Shown here: one piece after another, positions 802 to 55,742 of the stretch | Numbering within the stretch: the first letter of the stretch is position 1 | Layout: every line of letters begins with the position of its first letter | From: Patescibacteria group bacterium | GTDB lineage: Bacteria; Patescibacteriota; Microgenomatia; UBA1406; GWC2-37-13 | Direction of reading: 5' to 3' | NCBI GenBank assembly: GCA_026004435.1 | Contig: BPJD01000001.1 | Location: 124,001-188,000, forward strand | Length of the DNA stretch: 64,000 nucleotides | Notes under the pieces: model-generated | Databases searched by the model: none | The model's input: only the letters and a program-made list of their open reading frames with translations | What the model was told of the DNA's origin: nothing | Position numbers and translations under genes: made by a program

Positions 802-2031
802 ATGACAAAAGAAAAAATTATCAACTATATAAAGGTTGGTCTGATTTTAAGTTTGTCTTTGGTTTTGGTGCTTGTTTTAAATCGTTTTTTTATTGGCGAT
901 ACTCCTTATCTAAACAAACCTGCTGTTGTAGCAATGATTGTAAAGACTCAAGGCTTGTTGTCTTCGATTGCTGATTTAGTATTACAATCTGAGGTTGATA
1001 CTGATAAAACCTCAGATAACTTAATCAGCCGAAATAATAAAGGCATTACTTGGCAGGAGCCTAAATTAAAGCCAACTGCTGTTATCTCAGATCTTAAGAC
1101 GAATACTGCAGAAATCAGGCCTAATGATTATTTAACTCAGTCAGAGTCTGATGGCAATTTAGATCAAACTAATAGAGTTGACCAGACTCAGACTAATAGA
1201 GTTGACCAGACTGAAACTAACAGAGTTGACCAGACTCAAACTAATAGAGTTGACCACAACTATGAATCTGATATTGTTGCTAATGATTATGGCAATGATT
1301 CAGTTGAAAATGAAACTTCACAAGTTAATCAGGAGACATCATTTTCAAGTTTTAGTTGTTCTAATCTTCCAGAAAAAAAATTTTCGCTTTTGTCTGCCAA
1401 TTACGAACCTGATAACTTTCCCTTAAGCGGCGATTTAAAATCAAATCCAGATGTTAATCTTTATTTGCGCGGCTTTGAGCCTAATAATGAAGCAAAGGAG
1501 CTGATTGACAGAACGCATAATTATGGTTTAGACTATATTGATCCTCCTCAGATCAGTACTGTGTTTAAGGATAAACAGCCTCAGATTGCAAATACTTATC
1601 ATATCTTTGAGTGGGATTTTAACAAAAAAAAATCTTTAGCTCCTCTAATAGCTACTCCAAACTTTAAGGTTCATATGTTAGGTCTTAAAGCAGTCCCGGG
1701 TGATAAGATCTATGCTCCTTATACCGGCAGATCAATCGGCAGTGGAAAAGCATACTTGGTTTTGTTTGCGGATTCAAATAATATTTTACTGACAAACTCA
1801 AGAGCAAATGCCTTAAACAGCGGGTATCTTGTTTATTTTTTAGATATCTGCGTTTATCCAAGCTTGGTCAATCTTTATAATTCTGCTGATTCTTCCGGCA
1901 GAACATCTTTGCCTGCCTTAGCAGTTGGTGAAGAGTTTGCTGTTTCAAGAACAAATGAGGTTAAGATCGTTGTCAGGGACTCTATGTCGTTTATGGATAT
2001 TCGTTCTAGGCAAGACTGGTGGAGAAAGTAA
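802..2031 (+). CDS. Secreted/anchored repeat protein, unknown function
   Basis: I start this gene at ATG 802 rather than at an upstream codon (697). A -10 box TACAAT (789-794) ends 7 nt before 802, and the N-terminus from 802 (MTKEKIINYIK, then a strong hydrophobic helix) is a good membrane anchor. The protein is 409 residues long. After the anchor comes a low-complexity Asp/Asn/Thr-rich linker with four TNRVDQT-type repeats. A compact C-terminal domain of about 200 residues follows (KAVPGDKIYAPYTG; a Trp-rich end). I do not recognise the domain. It is probably exported. Confidence 0.7.
   Translation: MTKEKIINYIKVGLILSLSLVLVLVLNRFFIGDTPYLNKPAVVAMIVKTQGLLSSIADLVLQSEVDTDKTSDNLISRNNKGITWQEPKLKPTAVISDLKTNTAEIRPNDYLTQSESDGNLDQTNRVDQTQTNRVDQTETNRVDQTQTNRVDHNYESDIVANDYGNDSVENETSQVNQETSFSSFSCSNLPEKKFSLLSANYEPDNFPLSGDLKSNPDVNLYLRGFEPNNEAKELIDRTHNYGLDYIDPPQISTVFKDKQPQIANTYHIFEWDFNKKKSLAPLIATPNFKVHMLGLKAVPGDKIYAPYTGRSIGSGKAYLVLFADSNNILLTNSRANALNSGYLVYFLDICVYPSLVNLYNSADSSGRTSLPALAVGEEFAVSRTNEVKIVVRDSMSFMDIRSRQDWWRK
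1168..1257 (+). repeat. 24-bp coding tandem repeat, about 3.75 units
   Basis: The unit begins ACTAATAGAGTTGACCAGAC and is repeated at 1168, 1192, 1216 and 1240 (the last one partial), with one or two base changes per unit. It is in frame and encodes TNRVDQTQ-type octapeptides in the linker of the protein starting at 802. Copy number could vary by slippage. Confidence 0.9.
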
Positions 2032-34139: not shown

Positions 34140-37100
34140 ATGGAAAGCCAAGAACAAATAAAAATTCAATCTCTTCAACAAGAACTAATAAAAACTCTAT
34201 TAACAACCCTTGTTGAAAATCCTACCTCTAGTTTTCGTCAACAATGGGCAGATTTATTAAGAAACAATGGCGACAAACAAAAAGTTTTAAACTTTGATCA
34301 ATATCCAACTCTTTCTTCTCTTTTAAACAGTCTATCTTTTTCTTCAAAAAGAGCTTTGTTTCAATGCTTATTTAGAGAATTACAAGAAAAAGAAATTACA
34401 TCTGCAGAAAAATTAATTAGGTTTTTAAGAGAACTTAGAGCCCCCCAAATACAAGAAAGAATAAGAATAATTTATAATCTTCCCTACTTTGTTGATCTTG
34501 ATTTTTTAAAAGTACTTATGATGCAAGTAAGAACAGGTTCAATCTCACTGGAAGATTTTTTAAAACTTTTAGGAGAAAATGGCCAGGTATCCAATAAAAG
34601 AATCAAAGAAGAACTTGAGCAAAAAACAGAAAGAAAAATTACTCACTTTCCAAAAGATCGCAGGGCAGAAATTACCCGTCAATATCAATCACCTGAACCT
34701 TTAAAACAATCAATTGCTGAAGCGGTTTCAAACTCTATTGATGCTATCTTAACTAAACAAGGGATTGAAAGATCTATTGGCCAATGGGGTAGAGGAATTA
34801 AAATGTTAACCGCTTATCTTGATCATCCTCAAGATTCAATTGTTGTTACAACTACAAAAGACAATCAAACCTGGCAGATTGAGATTAAAAAAGGCGGTGA
34901 TGGCAGATTTTATCTTCGATCAGAAAAAATTGACCAACCAAAAGAAGAACAAGAAGCTACCGGTACTACTGTTACCTTACAAAAACAACCATTAGACGAA
35001 GATTTTTTAGAACTACTTAAAATAAATTTAAAAACAAGATTTCGTTTTACTCCTGATGTTGAAATAAAAATTAATGATGAACCGATTAATGACTACGCCA
35101 ACCTTATCAATCTTTCAACCAATAAACCTTTAAAAAGAGAAAAAACCTTAGGCAATGTTGATATTAGTTTAAAACCCAATCAAGTCTCTATTAAAGATAA
35201 TGGTAGTGGGATGACACCTGATCAACTTTTATCAATGTTTATTCCTAATCTGGGTAGCAAACCATTTATTGAGATTACCCAAGATAATCGTCATTTATTT
35301 TTACCTCTGGTTGAGGTTTTTTATGAAGAAACTCGTCCAGAAAAAGAAGAAGCTTGTATTTACTTTAGTCGCAACCGAGAGGTAATTTTTTCTATTAGAC
35401 TTGATGATAAACTTAATCTTTTTAACCAACCGCTATTTTTTGAACTTGGTCCTCTTCTTGAAAGTTCTGATGCTAGATTACAAATAAAAATTAATGATAA
35501 TTTTAAAGAGGCAATTAAAAAAACAATTGATTTGGTTGTTGAAGGTGAGACTGAATCACTAACCAAAATTCAGGTACTCAATACTTTAACCGTTTATTTA
35601 CTTAAATCAGGTGGAGAAAAGTTAGGCGATAAAAGACAACAAACTTTCTTTATTACCCAAGATATCATTACTTACTGTCAAGAAAAAATCGCTCCTTTAA
35701 TTGAAGATCTTACTCATAAAGGCTATCGGTTTATTCCTAACAATCCTGAGTTTTCTTATCTAAAAATATCTACTGACCCCAAGACAATCTTTCTTGATTC
35801 TCATCTTTTTTATTTTAAACCGCAGAAAATTCCTGATTTTGAACAGATTCCTCCGTCTATTTTTCAAAGTTCAACTGGAAAAAAACTTTTTCTCGCTGAT
35901 TTTAAAGAAGAAGCACCATCACCAATTATCGCCTATGAAAACGGTTTTTTTATCGATAAAAAAGTATGGCAAAAGCTTTTAGATTTGAAAGAAAAATCGC
36001 CACAAGATTTTGAGGTTTTACTTACTGCTTTAAATCTTCGTCTTAATCCGGTTTCAACCTCATACGATCCTTATGAAGAACCCTTAAAAAATCTTCAGAA
36101 CATAATTGTTTTCAAAGACCAAATCCAAGAAGAAAGTGAATCACAAGAAACAAAACTACCACTATGGTTAACTTCTGAACAAAAAGAAAAAATAAAAAAT
36201 ACCTTTGAAGGTATTAAAGAGATTGCCGATTATGGAAATTCGGTTAATTCTGTCTCTTTTTCTCCTGATGGACAAAAGATTGTTTATGCTGGAAAAAGTG
36301 GTAAAGTCTATCTTTATGATCTTCAAACAAAAGAATCAAAGTCTATTGCTGATTATGGAAGTTGGGTTATTTCTGTCTCTTTTTCTCCTGATGGACAAAA
36401 GATTGTTTATGCGGGAGAAGATGGTAAAGTCTATCTTTATGATCTTCAAACACAAGAATTAAAGCTTATTGCTAATTATAGAAATAGAAGGTGGGTTATT
36501 TCTGTCTCTTTTTCTCCTGATGGACAAAATATTGTTTATGCGGGCAGCGGTGGTACAGTCTATCTTTATGATCTTCAAACACAAGAATCAAAGCTTATTG
36601 CTGATTATAGAAGTGGGGTTAATTCTGTCTCTTTTTCTCCTGATGGACAAAAGATTGTTTATACGGGAGAAGGTGGTACAGTCTATCTTTATGATCTTCA
36701 AACACAAGAATCAAAGCTTATTGCTAATTATAGAAGTTGGGTTATTTCTGTCTCTTTTTCTCCTGATGGACAAAAGATTGTTTGTGCGGTTATCGGTGGT
36801 CAAGTCTATCTTTATGATTTTCAAACAAAAGAATCAAAGTCTATTGCTAATTGTGGAAGTTCGGTTAATTCTGTCTCTTTTTCTCCTGATGGACAAAAGA
36901 TTGTTTATGCGGACACCGATGGTACAGTCTATCTTTATGATCTTCAAACAAAAGAATCAAAGTCTATTGCTGATTATAGAAGTTGGGTTAATTCTGTCTC
37001 TTTTTCTCCTGATGGACAAAAGATTGTTTATGCGGGAAAAAGTGGTAAAGTCTATGAAGCAACTGTTGATTATAAAATAAATTTTACTTTCTCAAAAGCT

Positions 37101-39704
37101 AGCAGTCTTCTTGAAGCTTTAAATGATCTTTATTCATCACCTCAGACAATCGTTGATGCTTTTTGTGAGTTTTTTGTTAAAGAAAAAAATGAAATTAATG
37201 AAAATTTGCTTACTGAAATTGTCAAGATATTAAAAGAAACTGAAACTTTAAAAAAACTTCAACAACTTACACAACAATTTCCTCAAATCTCCGAGTGGTT
37301 AAATGATGAAGAAAGAACAAAAACTCTAAACCAAATAATAACCAACACTCTCTACGCCTACTTTTTTGCCGTAAAAGAAAAAAATTTTTCTTCATTATTG
37401 CAGGAAAAAATTTTCGACAGCTCACTTTTTTACTTTCTTGATTTTTCCCTAATAAATCCTAATTTTGATTATGATAATCTTGAACAAATTATTAACAATT
37501 TCCCAATTTCAGAAAATCTGCTCAAACACCAAAGATATTTTTATCTTATCAATGGTTTTTTTGCCTGGGAAAAAGATCCTCAAAAAAGAGCTTTGTTTTT
37601 AGAAAAACTTTTTAAGATAAAAAACAATCCTAACTATCAAAAATATTTGGAATCTATTCAAGAGTATAACCAAAAAAAAATACAAGAGTTTTTTTCTCAG
37701 CGAACAATTGATAAAGCCATCAAGGGTCGTGCTTTGTTTGAGTATCTAAAAAAAGAGGGCGCAATTGCCATAGAAACCGCTTCTTTTGAAAGTCTTGATA
37801 GTGAATGGGGGATAAATGATAAAAATTCTTCTCTTTTTGCTCGTCCTCAAGTGCCACTTACAGAAATTTTTTATCAGTATCATATTAAAGGAAATAGAGA
37901 TTGGCAAGCAATTGTTGAGAAAATTAATCAAGAAGCTTCCACTCCTCTCAATCTTGAAACTTTTCGTCAAGAGTTAATCAAAGAAGTTAGCGGACAGGCA
38001 ATTGAAGAAGGAGTGGCTAAACGAGAAATGATTCAAAATGCCGTTGATGCCATAAAAAAAAGAGATGACATCAGTGAAGGAAGAATTGATATTAAAATAA
38101 GGATAGCTGAAAAAGACGGGGAGGAGTATTTGGTTGAAGAATTTTCTGACAATGGTACCGGTGTTTTAAATTGGGTAAAGTTCTTTATCCCAGGAGAAAC
38201 AACCAAACTTAAAGGTGATGAAGGTTTTTTTGGCAGCGGTGCTTTTAAAATATTTGAAGGGTCTGATAGAGTAGATATTTTATCATCCGATGGCAAAAAC
38301 ACTTTTTACTTTCGCTTTGAATGGCAAAACAACAATCTCGTCATTACTGAATCTCAAATTATTCCTAATCACCAAGGAGAAAAAGGCACCTCAATCAGAC
38401 GAATAAAAAAGATAAAAGAAGACACAATTAAAGAAATTGAGGCAGGAATTATTGTTGATGACTATGTTGCTTTTGCCGGATTAATTGCTGATGAAACAGT
38501 AGAAGGCAAAACAATAAAAATCTCTTTAAACAACGAACCTCTTCATCTTCAAAAAGAAAAACGATTAGAAGAAGACTTTATGGAGTTTGGCCCAATTATT
38601 TTAGTGGAAAGTTCTCTTCCTCCAACCATTGCTCATGGAATCGGTTTAAGAATGAGCGATTTGAATGAGATGTATCTTGAGTATGTTCCTGAAGATTTAA
38701 AACAACTTTTAAAAGACAAAAAAATCTCAATTATTCTTCCTTCGTCTTTACCTTTAATAAAAGATAGAAGTAGAATTGCCAATGAAGAACATCTGCTTGA
38801 ACCTTTAAAAAGAAAAATTGCCGGTATGGTAATCAAATTGGCCGCTCAAGAACTTATTCAAAACTTTCGACAAAGAATCGCTCAAGGAGTATCAAAAATA
38901 ATCTGGAAACCAAAAGGTTTTCCAGATGACTGGTTTATTAATCCTCAATACTCATCTCTTTCCCCCTCTGATGTTAAAAAAATAATAGAAATAATAAGGA
39001 AACTAAACAGTGGTGAGATTTTAAACTACGAGGAGCTTAACATTTTAAATCAGCCTTTTGATGTTACCAGCAGATTGGCAATGGTTATTGTTCGCATTAA
39101 AGTTCCTTTAAAAGATGGTCGACAATCAAATCTCCTTGTTGAAATAAACAAAGTTAAAAGAACCAAAAAATTACGGCAAATTTACCGAAGAAAATTTGAT
39201 CCACAAGTAAGATCTAGTTTATCTTCGTCAATAAATGGAAAAATAGATTTACAAGGCATTTATACCACAAATGGAAAAATAGATTTAGGCATTGATACCA
39301 CTTTATTACAACAACCAGGATCTATAGATATAGATCAAGGAGTTGGGGTTGCAAATTCCTTTTTTGGTAAACGTGATGAAAAAGATGTTAATGAGCAATT
39401 GTTAACTGAAAAACAAAAAAAAATCCTTGACCAACTTAGAAAAATTGCCGCTCTTTTTGGATTATCAGTAATTCCAAAAAAAGATATTGGTGCAAATGGA
39501 TATTTTCATAACAAATATTTCGTAGTTGATATTTCTGTTTTGGATAAGCCATTACCCTATGCTGCTGCAATATTTTTGCATGAACTAGCTCATTTTGGCC
39601 CAATCTATAATGATCTTTTTACTAATCAAGTTAGTGGCGTCTTTGGCGAATTGTATTATTGGGTTTTAGATCAGGTTTTACAACAATATCCAAAAATGAA
39701 TTAG
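34140..39704 (+). CDS. Giant GHKL-WD40-GHKL-metallopeptidase protein (1854 aa)
   Basis: Domains in order: a helical N-terminus; a first GHKL-like ATPase region with EAVSNSIDAI (N box, near 194), GQWGRGIKML (near 215), ATGTTVTL (near 273) and a late DNGSGM (near 354); a helical and beta linker; seven WD40-like units (about 694-977), each with VSFSPDGQKIVYAG and VYLYDLQT; a helical region; a second, canonical GHKL ATPase with EMIQNAVDAI (near 1295), FSDNGTGV (near 1335), DEGFFGSGAFKIF (near 1360) and GEKGTSIRR; and a C-terminal zinc-peptidase motif FLHELAHFGP (His1814, Glu1815, His1818) with a possible third ligand Glu1837. No membrane helix is seen. In the first GHKL copy the Asp-box comes after the G2-like motif, so it is permuted or degenerate. 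I know no named family with this order. A sensor or chaperone-like conflict protein is an inference. Confidence 0.85.
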   Translation: MESQEQIKIQSLQQELIKTLLTTLVENPTSSFRQQWADLLRNNGDKQKVLNFDQYPTLSSLLNSLSFSSKRALFQCLFRELQEKEITSAEKLIRFLRELRAPQIQERIRIIYNLPYFVDLDFLKVLMMQVRTGSISLEDFLKLLGENGQVSNKRIKEELEQKTERKITHFPKDRRAEITRQYQSPEPLKQSIAEAVSNSIDAILTKQGIERSIGQWGRGIKMLTAYLDHPQDSIVVTTTKDNQTWQIEIKKGGDGRFYLRSEKIDQPKEEQEATGTTVTLQKQPLDEDFLELLKINLKTRFRFTPDVEIKINDEPINDYANLINLSTNKPLKREKTLGNVDISLKPNQVSIKDNGSGMTPDQLLSMFIPNLGSKPFIEITQDNRHLFLPLVEVFYEETRPEKEEACIYFSRNREVIFSIRLDDKLNLFNQPLFFELGPLLESSDARLQIKINDNFKEAIKKTIDLVVEGETESLTKIQVLNTLTVYLLKSGGEKLGDKRQQTFFITQDIITYCQEKIAPLIEDLTHKGYRFIPNNPEFSYLKISTDPKTIFLDSHLFYFKPQKIPDFEQIPPSIFQSSTGKKLFLADFKEEAPSPIIAYENGFFIDKKVWQKLLDLKEKSPQDFEVLLTALNLRLNPVSTSYDPYEEPLKNLQNIIVFKDQIQEESESQETKLPLWLTSEQKEKIKNTFEGIKEIADYGNSVNSVSFSPDGQKIVYAGKSGKVYLYDLQTKESKSIADYGSWVISVSFSPDGQKIVYAGEDGKVYLYDLQTQELKLIANYRNRRWVISVSFSPDGQNIVYAGSGGTVYLYDLQTQESKLIADYRSGVNSVSFSPDGQKIVYTGEGGTVYLYDLQTQESKLIANYRSWVISVSFSPDGQKIVCAVIGGQVYLYDFQTKESKSIANCGSSVNSVSFSPDGQKIVYADTDGTVYLYDLQTKESKSIADYRSWVNSVSFSPDGQKIVYAGKSGKVYEATVDYKINFTFSKASSLLEALNDLYSSPQTIVDAFCEFFVKEKNEINENLLTEIVKILKETETLKKLQQLTQQFPQISEWLNDEERTKTLNQIITNTLYAYFFAVKEKNFSSLLQEKIFDSSLFYFLDFSLINPNFDYDNLEQIINNFPISENLLKHQRYFYLINGFFAWEKDPQKRALFLEKLFKIKNNPNYQKYLESIQEYNQKKIQEFFSQRTIDKAIKGRALFEYLKKEGAIAIETASFESLDSEWGINDKNSSLFARPQVPLTEIFYQYHIKGNRDWQAIVEKINQEASTPLNLETFRQELIKEVSGQAIEEGVAKREMIQNAVDAIKKRDDISEGRIDIKIRIAEKDGEEYLVEEFSDNGTGVLNWVKFFIPGETTKLKGDEGFFGSGAFKIFEGSDRVDILSSDGKNTFYFRFEWQNNNLVITESQIIPNHQGEKGTSIRRIKKIKEDTIKEIEAGIIVDDYVAFAGLIADETVEGKTIKISLNNEPLHLQKEKRLEEDFMEFGPIILVESSLPPTIAHGIGLRMSDLNEMYLEYVPEDLKQLLKDKKISIILPSSLPLIKDRSRIANEEHLLEPLKRKIAGMVIKLAAQELIQNFRQRIAQGVSKIIWKPKGFPDDWFINPQYSSLSPSDVKKIIEIIRKLNSGEILNYEELNILNQPFDVTSRLAMVIVRIKVPLKDGRQSNLLVEINKVKRTKKLRQIYRRKFDPQVRSSLSSSINGKIDLQGIYTTNGKIDLGIDTTLLQQPGSIDIDQGVGVANSFFGKRDEKDVNEQLLTEKQKKILDQLRKIAALFGLSVIPKKDIGANGYFHNKYFVVDISVLDKPLPYAAAIFLHELAHFGPIYNDLFTNQVSGVFGELYYWVLDQVLQQYPKMN
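36220..37070 (+). repeat. Seven near-identical WD40-coding repeats (about 120 bp)
   Basis: Seven in-frame units of about 120 bp (the third is about 6 bp longer) encode one WD40 blade each. The framework DNA is almost the same in each. Changes cluster at two sites per unit: the blade-top residues before VNSVSF or VISVSF (YGNS, YGSW, YRNRRW, YRSG, YRSW, CGSS, YRSW) and those after VYAG (KSGK, EDGK, SGGT, EGGT, VIGGQ, DTDGT, KSGK). Confidence 0.9.
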
Positions 39705-40820: not shown

Positions 40821-41074
40821 ATTTATTTATAATTCAAGCGTACTTCTGTAAAAAAATCAAAATTTCATTCCTTTATTTTAATCCTTCAACACCTTTTTCT
40901 CAAAAATTTTCAGAAAAATATGTCGTACAACTCTTTTCTATACGAATTGTTTGTACAATACTGACCTTTTAGTTGCATATTATACCAACTTAATATATAT
41001 AATCATAAACGACATTACAATTGTCTATTTATTAGTTTTAGTTTACCAATTTTTATTAAAAATATGCAAGAAAA

Positions 41075-41559
41075 TATATAAGTCGGTTACATCGGTAACA
41101 CTCTCATTAGCCTATAATTTTCATTATACCATTCAACTGGTGATTGATAATTAAGTGATTGCTGATATCTTATAAGATTGTAAAAGATTAACTATTCGGT
41201 TAATCTCTTGTTTGCATCTGTAAGGTCTGTCTCTGTTAATAAATCTTCAAAATATTCATCCTCCTGCATAAACTTCTTCTGTAAGCTCCTAGTAAATTTT
41301 TCATGTACTTTTTGCTTTGGCAAAATCAATTGTTTTTCTTCTTCTTCTTTTCTTTGGCCTTCTAGAAAGCATCCTTGTTTTGGTGAAACTTTTAATCAAA
41401 AGTCCTGGGAGACTATGTCCTGAACCGAACTTGTTCTGGTTTAGGATTATATTGTATAGAGAATGTCCCTGCATCTTTTAATTATTCTTTACCTAATTCC
41501 ATAGCGTTTGATGATATAAGTTGATATAGAAGTGTTAGCTATGTATCTCAACTTGCGCA
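41075..41559 (-). mobile_element. 485-bp non-autonomous element, copy R2
   Basis: This is nearly identical to the copy at 55224 in reverse orientation, with exactly the same 485-bp length. Ends: TATATAAGTCGG at 41075 (one base off the TGTATAAGT consensus) and ...ACTTGCGCA at 41559. No target duplication is visible. The inside holds only the C-terminal part of a DDE integrase with stops. A small open frame on the opposite strand is a shadow. Confidence 0.85.
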
Positions 41560-44790: not shown

Positions 44791-45314
44791 ATGAGAAATC
44801 TATTAAAAAAAGGGGATGTTCTTTACTGGGTTCAGACAGGCTTAAGAGTAAATTATAACTATAGTCTTAAGTTTGCTATTGAAAAGGCAAATGAGTTAAA
44901 GAAACCTCTTTTGGTCTATTTTGTCTTAAAAGAGTTTGCGTGGGGAAATTTAAGGCAGTATGAATTTTTAAAACAAGGAACATTTGAGTTTAAGAACAAT
45001 TTAGAAAAAACAGGAGTTAATTTTTTAATCGAAAAAGGTGATTTTGATTTGGTTCTTAAAAGGTCTAAAATACTTGCTTAGTTGTTTCTGACTATGGTTA
45101 TCTAAAGGGGCAGAGAGCTTGGAGGAAAAGTCTGGCTTCTAGTTTAATTCAAGCTTTTTATGAGATAGAATCTGATCTTTTGATCCCTATAAGATTTATT
45201 TCTTCCAAATCAGTAACCTATGCTTTTCAAATTAGGAAAAAAGTTTTTGACCTGCTGATAAATTTTGTAAAAGACTTTTCCCTACCCCATCTTAAAAATA
45301 CTCAGAAAATGTAA
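44791..45314 (+). pseudogene. Photolyase (class II-like) N-terminal remnant
   Basis: The first 96 codons encode an antenna-type N-terminus: VLYWVQTGLRVNYNYSLKFA and KKPLLVYFVLKEF match DNA photolyases of the class II type. After a frameshift near 45080 it continues VSDYGYLKGQRAWRKSLA..., then is lost near 45314. The FAD-binding C-terminal domain is missing, so it is non-functional. Confidence 0.75.
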
Positions 45315-55223: not shown

Positions 55224-55708
55224 TGCGCAAGTTGAGATACATAAGTAACACTTCTATATCAACTTATATCATCAAACGATATGGAATTAGGTAAAGGATC
55301 ATTAAAAGATGCAGGGACATTACCTATACAATATAATCCTAAACCAGAACAAGTTCGGTTCAGGATATAGTCTCCCAGGACTTTTGATTAAAAGTTTCAC
55401 CAAAACAAGGATGCTTTCTAGAAGGCCAAAGAAAAGAAGAAGAAGAAAAACAATTGATTTTGCCAAAGCAAAAAGTACATGAAAAATTTACTAGGAGCTT
55501 ACAGAAGAAGTTTATGCAGGAGGATGAATATTTTGAAGATTTATTAACAGAGACAGACCTTACAGATGCAAACAAGAGATTAACCGAATAGTTAATCTTT
55601 TACAATCTTATAAGATATCAGCAATCACTTAATTATCAATCACCAGTTGAATGGTATAATGAAAATTATAGGCTAATGAGAGTGTTACCGATGTAACCGA
55701 CTTATACA
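55224..55708 (+). mobile_element. 485-bp non-autonomous element, copy R3
   Basis: Ends are imperfect inverted repeats of about 28 bp with TG...CA termini: TGCGCAAGTTGAGATACAT on the left and, inverted, TGTATAAGTCGGTTACAT on the right, both running into GTAACACT. A 5-bp target duplication AGTAC flanks it (55219-55223, 55709-55713). The plus strand encodes only an integrase tail: FTRSLQKKFMQEDEYFEDLL, YNLIRYQQSLNYQSPVEWYN, with stops. It cannot move itself. Confidence 0.9.
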
Positions 55709-55713
55709 AGTAC

Positions 55714-55742
55714 TTGACAAATTTGATAATAGACTTTATAGT
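55714..55742 (+). promoter_or_regulatory. Leaderless promoter of the pilin gene
   Basis: TTGACA (55714-55719), 17 bp and TATAGT (55737-55742) end 6 nt before ATG 55749. The -35 begins at the base after the R3 target duplication. Confidence 0.85.

What the first reader, a model, noticed from the sequence alone, without database searches (positions are those of the whole stretch)
34140..39704. Giant GHKL-WD40-GHKL-HExxH protein: candidate new sensor/effector system
One uninterrupted 1854-residue frame joins two GHKL ATPase modules, a seven-unit WD40 propeller and a C-terminal HELAH zinc-peptidase motif with a possible third ligand Glu 19 residues on. I know no named family with this order. ATP-driven conformational modules joined to a repeat sensor and a protease suggest a signal- or damage-triggered proteolysis machine, perhaps antiviral. 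The function is inference; the motifs are directly visible.
Basis: partly seen in the sequence, partly recalled or inferred. Interest (0 to 1): 0.88.

Follow-up and report, generated by a model that had tools for sequence, protein, structure and literature searches.

The report
Two-armed Hsp90-like protein, one arm shuffled
A tiny symbiont-type (CPR) bacterium carries a rare giant protein with two Hsp90-like ATP motors, a recently copied propeller and a metallopeptidase-like tail, and the first motor appears to have its ATP-binding pieces wired in a new order, which no described family is known to do.

Summary
The window is from a Microgenomates (CPR) genome. It belongs to a rare family (6 members found): two soluble relatives share the full plan as far as sequenced (G025, Ca. 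Roizmanbacteria; G021, cut by its contig end), one soluble 1822-aa relative in another class lacks the propeller (G516), and two ~14,000-aa proteins carry the same GHKL-GHKL-HExxH cassette.

First, the N-terminal GHKL is rearranged: N-box, G2, G3, then the G1 hairpin plus lid, directly before the transducer; the three relatives without a propeller have normal order. Grp94 and NCBIfam Hsp90 profiles match in swapped order, and restoring the order in silico raises the profile score from 77 to 121. Second, the third zinc ligand is not the proposed Glu (Lys in the nearest relative) but a conserved TH, which is TN in this protein.

Most likely a single-chain Hsp90/sacsin-like ATP clamp coupled to a metallopeptidase. 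Antiviral use has no neighbourhood support. Structure models were too poor to confirm the fold.

The parts
34140..39704 (+). whole ORF, 1854 aa
   Evidence: conserved order in G025 (1925-aa open frame)
34140..34640 (+). N-terminal helical region (res 1-167), no family match
   Evidence: AF2 helices at low confidence
34719..34745 (+). GHKL1 N-box EAVSNSIDA (194-202)
   Evidence: invariant E194, N198, D201 in the window protein, G025, G021
34779..34796 (+). GHKL1 G2 box GQWGRG (214-219), only about 11 residues after the N-box, so G1 and lid cannot lie between them
   Evidence: matches Grp94 IGQFGVG
34956..34979 (+). GHKL1 G3 region ATGTTVTL (273-280)
35148..35264 (+). relocated G1 hairpin + lid block LGNVDISLKPNQVSIKDNGSGMTPDQLLSMFIPNLGSKP (337-375)
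35370..35640 (+). GHKL1 transducer-like region with invariant SxxR (R446)
   Evidence: de-permuted profile alignment runs through it
36222..37055 (+). seven WD40 blades, 123-bp units
37056..37940 (+). linker between propeller and GHKL2, no family match
38025..38396 (+). GHKL2 in canonical order: EMIQNAVDA, DNGTG, GFFGSG, KGTS
38757..38771 (+). GHKL2 transducer IKDRS (540-544 +1000, Arg conserved in G025, G516 and G142)
39579..39593 (+). HELAH (1814-1818)
   Evidence: H/E/H invariant in the five sequences compared
39618..39629 (+). FTNQ: site of the conserved TH third-ligand candidate, Asn (N1829) here

Best explanation
A soluble single-chain ATP-driven clamp. Two Hsp90/sacsin-type GHKL-transducer modules in one chain probably pair with each other in cis when ATP is bound, as GHKL modules of Hsp90 and MutL do between two chains. 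The propeller between them binds a protein or peptide; clamp closure presents the captured protein to, or de-represses, the C-terminal HExxH domain. In the first module the G1 hairpin and lid were moved from between the N-box and G2 to after G3, so the lid now runs straight into the transducer; this should couple nucleotide state to the clamp more directly. Shown by sequence: motifs, their order, relatives. Inferred: fold, ATP use, cis-pairing, proteolysis, target.
For: Homology of GHKL1 to canonical GHKL1 of three propeller-less relatives: hhalign E 9e-10 in native order, 5e-16 after moving the G1 block back (score 77 to 121; 98 control rearrangements, medians 85 and 81, best 98.9). Against the protein's own GHKL2: E 0.01 over 19 columns to 7.5e-6 over 148. 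A profile of the three shuffled domains hits Grp94 in two stretches in reversed order: chain 49-98 (DTGVGM) = query 146-193, chain 122-210 = query 34-131, total E 4.1e-7. NCBIfam Hsp90 PRK14083 positions 104-225 fall on residues 210-337, before the G1 at 353. Order identical in three genomes. GHKL2 profile hits Hsp90 structures at 7e-6. H-E-H invariant in five sequences; TH in four of five. No signal-peptide-like or TM stretch in the soluble members. GHKL clamp cycling: PMC12733681.
Against: Structure prediction inconclusive: 677-aa model pTM 0.37; domain alone pLDDT 61, pTM 0.58, Hsp90 chains top Foldseek but only at E 0.02 and VIA-align Z 3-4. The peptidase domain was not modelled. N1829 replaces the conserved His, so the window copy may be a weak or dead enzyme. 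Cis-pairing is an analogy. No conserved neighbour gives a target.
Confidence: 0.5

Rival explanations
1. A sacsin/HtpG-like proteostasis machine: the GHKL modules remodel clients held by the propeller, and the C-terminal zincin-like domain is structural or inactive.
For: G516 passes the NCBIfam cut-off for the sacsin N-terminal ATP-binding domain (53.9 vs 50 bits); sacsin also strings several Hsp90-like modules in one giant chain (PMC3710099); N1829 in the window copy.
Against: H-E-H kept in five sequences as far apart as 17% identity and TH in four; no DnaJ, HEPN or Ubl match in either half outside the propeller; very patchy, found in only 3 of 72 genomes of the family.
Confidence: 0.25
2. 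A conflict effector: a cassette delivered to or used against other cells or mobile elements, as polyvalent proteins and polymorphic toxins are, the zincin cutting targets or releasing domains.
For: The same cassette sits in ~14,000-aa proteins, one with an N-terminal TM segment (G092) and one with intein/PT-HINT domains (G142); zincins are the commonest domain of polyvalent proteins (PMC5512222); patchy distribution.
Against: Window protein, G025, G021 and G516 have no signal or TM segment and no evident immunity or delivery gene beside them; no phage or plasmid hit; the polyvalent paper's text mentions no GHKL.
Confidence: 0.15
3. An antiphage sensor-effector, distantly like Tiamat (TmtA).
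For: A TmtA profile touches a giant relative at E 5.1e-5 over about 100 of 1655 positions; a propeller that differs between members is plausible as a sensor.
Against: No TmtA match for the window protein; no recognisable defence genes beside it or G025 or G516.
Confidence: 0.1

Closest known systems
Hsp90/HtpG (Grp94, TRAP1; NCBIfam PRK14083)
   Same: GHKL motif set, transducer-like part with conserved Arg; nearest solved sequences
   Different: Two modules per chain, propeller and HExxH tail; far below the family cut-off (40.2 vs 455 bits); first module has G1 after G3
Sacsin (Hsp90-like repeats; NCBIfam NF047352)
   Same: Several Hsp90-like modules in one giant chain; relative G516 passes the domain cut-off
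   Different: Window protein does not pass (15.4 vs 50); no HEPN, DnaJ or Ubl found; has propeller and HExxH; first module shuffled
Tiamat (TmtA) antiphage protein
   Same: Weak GHKL-region match of a giant relative
   Different: Window protein not matched; no defence context
Zincin-like metallopeptidases of polyvalent proteins (PMC5512222)
   Same: HExxH in a multidomain chain, several HExxH motifs per giant relative
   Different: Third-ligand candidate is a TH (Asn here), not the Glu described for that group; no phage or conjugation context for the window protein
Recently amplified WD40 propellers (PMC9218822, PMC6805158)
   Same: Seven blades, core 78% identical as protein, 88% as DNA
   Different: Host protein is new; relatives carry different propeller-like repeats at the same place

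Membership tests
GHKL (Bergerat) ATPase, module 1 | N, G1, G2, G3 motifs present | tested here: met
GHKL (Bergerat) ATPase, module 1 | motif order N-G1-lid-G2-G3 | tested here: not met
   order is N-G2-G3-G1-lid in three genomes
GHKL (Bergerat) ATPase, module 1 | Bergerat fold | tested here: inconclusive
   pTM 0.37/0.58; Hsp90 hits weak
GHKL (Bergerat) ATPase, module 2 | motifs in canonical order | tested here: met
HSP90/HtpG | passes family cut-off; one N-M-C chain forming homodimers | tested here: not met
   40.2 vs 455 bits; two GHKL modules per chain
Sacsin-type | NF047352 domain over cut-off | tested here: not met
   window protein 15.4 vs 50; G516 53.9 meets it
Tiamat (TmtA) | full-length TmtA profile match | tested here: not met
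Zincin metallopeptidase | HExxH | tested here: met
   H/E/H invariant in 5 sequences
Zincin metallopeptidase | third metal ligand conserved | tested here: inconclusive
   TH in 4 relatives, TN in window; E1837 is Lys in G025
Zincin metallopeptidase | zincin fold and cleavage | not tested
WD40 propeller | seven PF00400 repeats | tested here: met
Polyvalent protein | phage or conjugative-element context | tested here: not met
   no hits in phages or plasmids; ordinary neighbours

The most novel reading that the evidence does not exclude
A natural, non-circular permutation of the GHKL ATPase fold: the G1 hairpin plus ATP lid has been moved behind G3 so that the lid is joined directly to the transducer, inside a single-chain two-armed clamp with a swappable propeller and a metallopeptidase tail.
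Probability: 0.65. Interest if true: 0.75.

Novelty: new variant of a known kind. Interest (0 to 1): 0.62.

Why it matters
GHKL ATPases (gyrase, Hsp90, histidine kinases, MutL, MORC) are treated as one fold with a fixed motif order in which the lid links G1 to G2. A working enzyme with the G1-lid block moved next to the transducer would show that this order is not obligatory and would be a natural experiment on how the lid passes ATP state to the rest of the clamp. It also suggests an Hsp90-like clamp fused to a peptidase in reduced CPR genomes, where no such system has been described as far as I could find.

Tried and rejected
The search for related loci with the C-terminus in genome contigs and viral contigs, and with the N-terminus in viral contigs: nothing. 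Phage and plasmid tblastn: no match. Class and phylum hits L015-L019 and L038, L040, L041: ordinary GHKL proteins such as GyrB, MutL-type, a histidine kinase and a ~500-aa GHKL family. G787: not a relative. The remaining weak hits were not read. Full N-terminal AF2 model and its fold searches: uninformative. Diversifying selection on blades: window 18 nonsynonymous vs 2 synonymous alternatives, P 0.07; G025 shows the opposite, so not claimed. Retroelement diversification: no RVT_1 in the genome and no second copy of the repeat DNA. Alternative that the 337-375 block starts a second degenerate GHKL: the stretch before it aligns with the end of the canonical domain and has no N-box helix in the model; not fully excluded. 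PHROGs: no useful match.

Full report
WHAT WAS CHECKED. The ORF 34140-39704 is a single open frame of 1854 aa starting at ATG. The window is contig 1, 124001-188000, of an 885-kb genome judged 98% complete. Its nearest full-length relative comes from a record titled Candidatus Roizmanbacteria and a second from a Microgenomates bacterium, so this is a CPR (Patescibacteria) genome (inference from the relatives, which share its family). Pfam finds seven WD40 repeats; TRF finds a 123-bp unit repeated 6.7 times at 88%. GHKL signals are weak for Pfam (N-terminal half HATPase_c E 0.0009) but clear with profiles: GHKL2 against Hsp90 structures 7e-6. HELAH is at residues 1814-1818.

RELATIVES. In 57 close genomes, only G025 matches the C-terminal half (42%) and only G025 and G021 the N-terminal half. 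In the 72 genomes of the family searched, 3, in three genera, carry the N-terminal half with strong scores, and the genus mate G001 does not. G025 has the full plan (1925-aa open frame); G021's frame runs off its contig after the propeller-like region. Wider profile searches found a standalone 1822-aa protein in another class (G516) and two ~14,000-aa proteins in another family of the class (G142, G092). These three have GHKL1, a long linker in place of the propeller, GHKL2 and HExxH, in the same order. The giants' GHKL1 matches the window's N-terminal half best (E 8e-6), and their GHKL2 its C-terminal half over 394 columns (E 5e-5), so the architecture looks inherited, not convergent.

THE SHUFFLED FIRST MODULE. 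Canonical GHKL order is N-box, G1 and lid, G2, G3 (established knowledge of the superfamily). In the window, G025 and G021 the N-box (EAVSNSIDA) is followed after about 11 residues by G2 (GQWGRG), then G3, and only then by the hairpin with DNGSGM and a lid-like helix, immediately before the transducer-like part. Several tests agree. (i) hhalign against the giants gives the two halves as separate, non-sequential hits. (ii) Moving the 39-residue block back between N-box and G2 in the alignment raises the score against the canonical relatives from 77 to 121 and E from 9e-10 to 5e-16. 50 moves of the same block elsewhere had median 85 and best 98.9; 48 moves of other blocks to that site had median 81 and best 94. 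(iii) The same operation turns a 19-column match with the protein's own GHKL2 into a 148-column one, E 7.5e-6. (iv) Searching the PDB with the three shuffled domains, Grp94 is hit twice in swapped order, total E 4e-7. (v) NCBIfam's Hsp90 model positions 104-225 match residues 210-337, upstream of the G1 at 353. Because three genomes share the order with 34-42% identity to the window, it is not an assembly error. It is not a circular permutation: block order A-B-C-D has become A-C-D-B. The literature searches I ran found no permuted GHKL; absence from that library is not proof.

STRUCTURE. AlphaFold2 with three rows gave a poor 677-aa model (pTM 0.37) and a middling model of the domain alone (pLDDT 61, pTM 0.58). 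Its best Foldseek rows are Hsp90 (E 0.02) and most VIA-align rows are Grp94/TRAP1/Hsp90 at Z 3-4. These programs are expected to follow chain order, and the values are too low to count as confirmation. Predicted elements (N-box helix 192-205, G2 helix 218-226, sheet, G1 hairpin 338-355, helix 360-367) fit the reading.

THE C-TERMINAL DOMAIN. H, E and H of HExxH are the invariant residues of that domain in the five sequences compared. The next conserved feature is TH followed by an aromatic: THNDTF (G516), THTPEF (both giants), FTHQVDGPF (G025), but FTNQVSGVF in the window. The automatic alignment does not put all five TH in one column; the register is my reading. So the third ligand is more likely the TH histidine, and the window copy carries Asn there; its activity is doubtful.

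THE PROPELLER. The seven blades are 78% identical as protein and 88% as DNA in the core. G025 has different, internally repeated blades (IMIYDPESNKLEDTGQ) and G021 diverged ones at the same place. Independent recent amplification of blades is a known process (PMC9218822). The propeller looks like an exchangeable recognition part. Selection for diversity was not demonstrated.

CONTEXT. Neighbours in the window (polyprenyl synthetase, glycosyltransferase, methyltransferase, NUDIX-like; then a PsbP-like membrane-anchored protein and M20 peptidase) are ordinary. By eye, G025 sits by rsmI, a topoisomerase and CTP synthase; G021 by a nucleotidyltransferase pair; G516 by MltG-like and nucleotidyltransferase genes. 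Nothing is shared, so it probably acts alone. Soluble members have no signal or TM stretch. Of the giants, G092 has an N-terminal TM segment and G142 contains intein/HINT domains, which leaves a conflict role open.

MECHANISM AND VERDICT. The best reading is a single-chain Hsp90/sacsin-like clamp: two GHKL-transducer arms, a propeller that captures a partner, and a metallopeptidase-like end. Order and homology are shown; fold, ATP use, cis-pairing and cleavage are inferred. The striking part is the relocated G1-lid block, which would wire the lid directly to the transducer.

Noticed in passing
L027-L029 (G142:C33 765-42602, open at its 5' end) and L030-L034 (G092:C3 66264-109109): Single open frames of 13,945 and 14,281 aa in Microgenomates genomes, with intein/PT-HINT domains (G142), an N-terminal TM segment (G092), several HExxH motifs and the GHKL-GHKL-HExxH cassette.
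   Followed up: partly
window 41067-41559 and 55224-55716: 493-nt inverted repeat, 98% complementary, 13.7 kb apart, flanking genes for a 655-aa protein, M20 peptidase, transposase-like and HerA-like fragments: IS copies or an invertible/composite element.
   Followed up: no
window 36222-37055: Differences between WD40 blades are skewed to changes from A (15 of 25 base changes, nominal P 0.002, post hoc), reminiscent of retroelement diversification, but no reverse transcriptase is found in the genome.
   Followed up: partly
L010 4693-5564 (G021): Nucleotidyltransferase (AbiEii-like by eye) and small partner gene next to the relative: possible toxin-antitoxin pair.
   Followed up: no
L043 3681-5906 (G516): GHKL2 of G516 has a long insertion between N-box and a degenerate G1 (DPVGM).
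   Followed up: no
window 44791-45081: Short photolyase-like N-terminal fragment (by eye), apparently a broken gene.
   Followed up: no
window 1164-1256: 24-bp tandem repeat x3.9 inside a 444-aa sortase-like (by eye) ORF.
   Followed up: no
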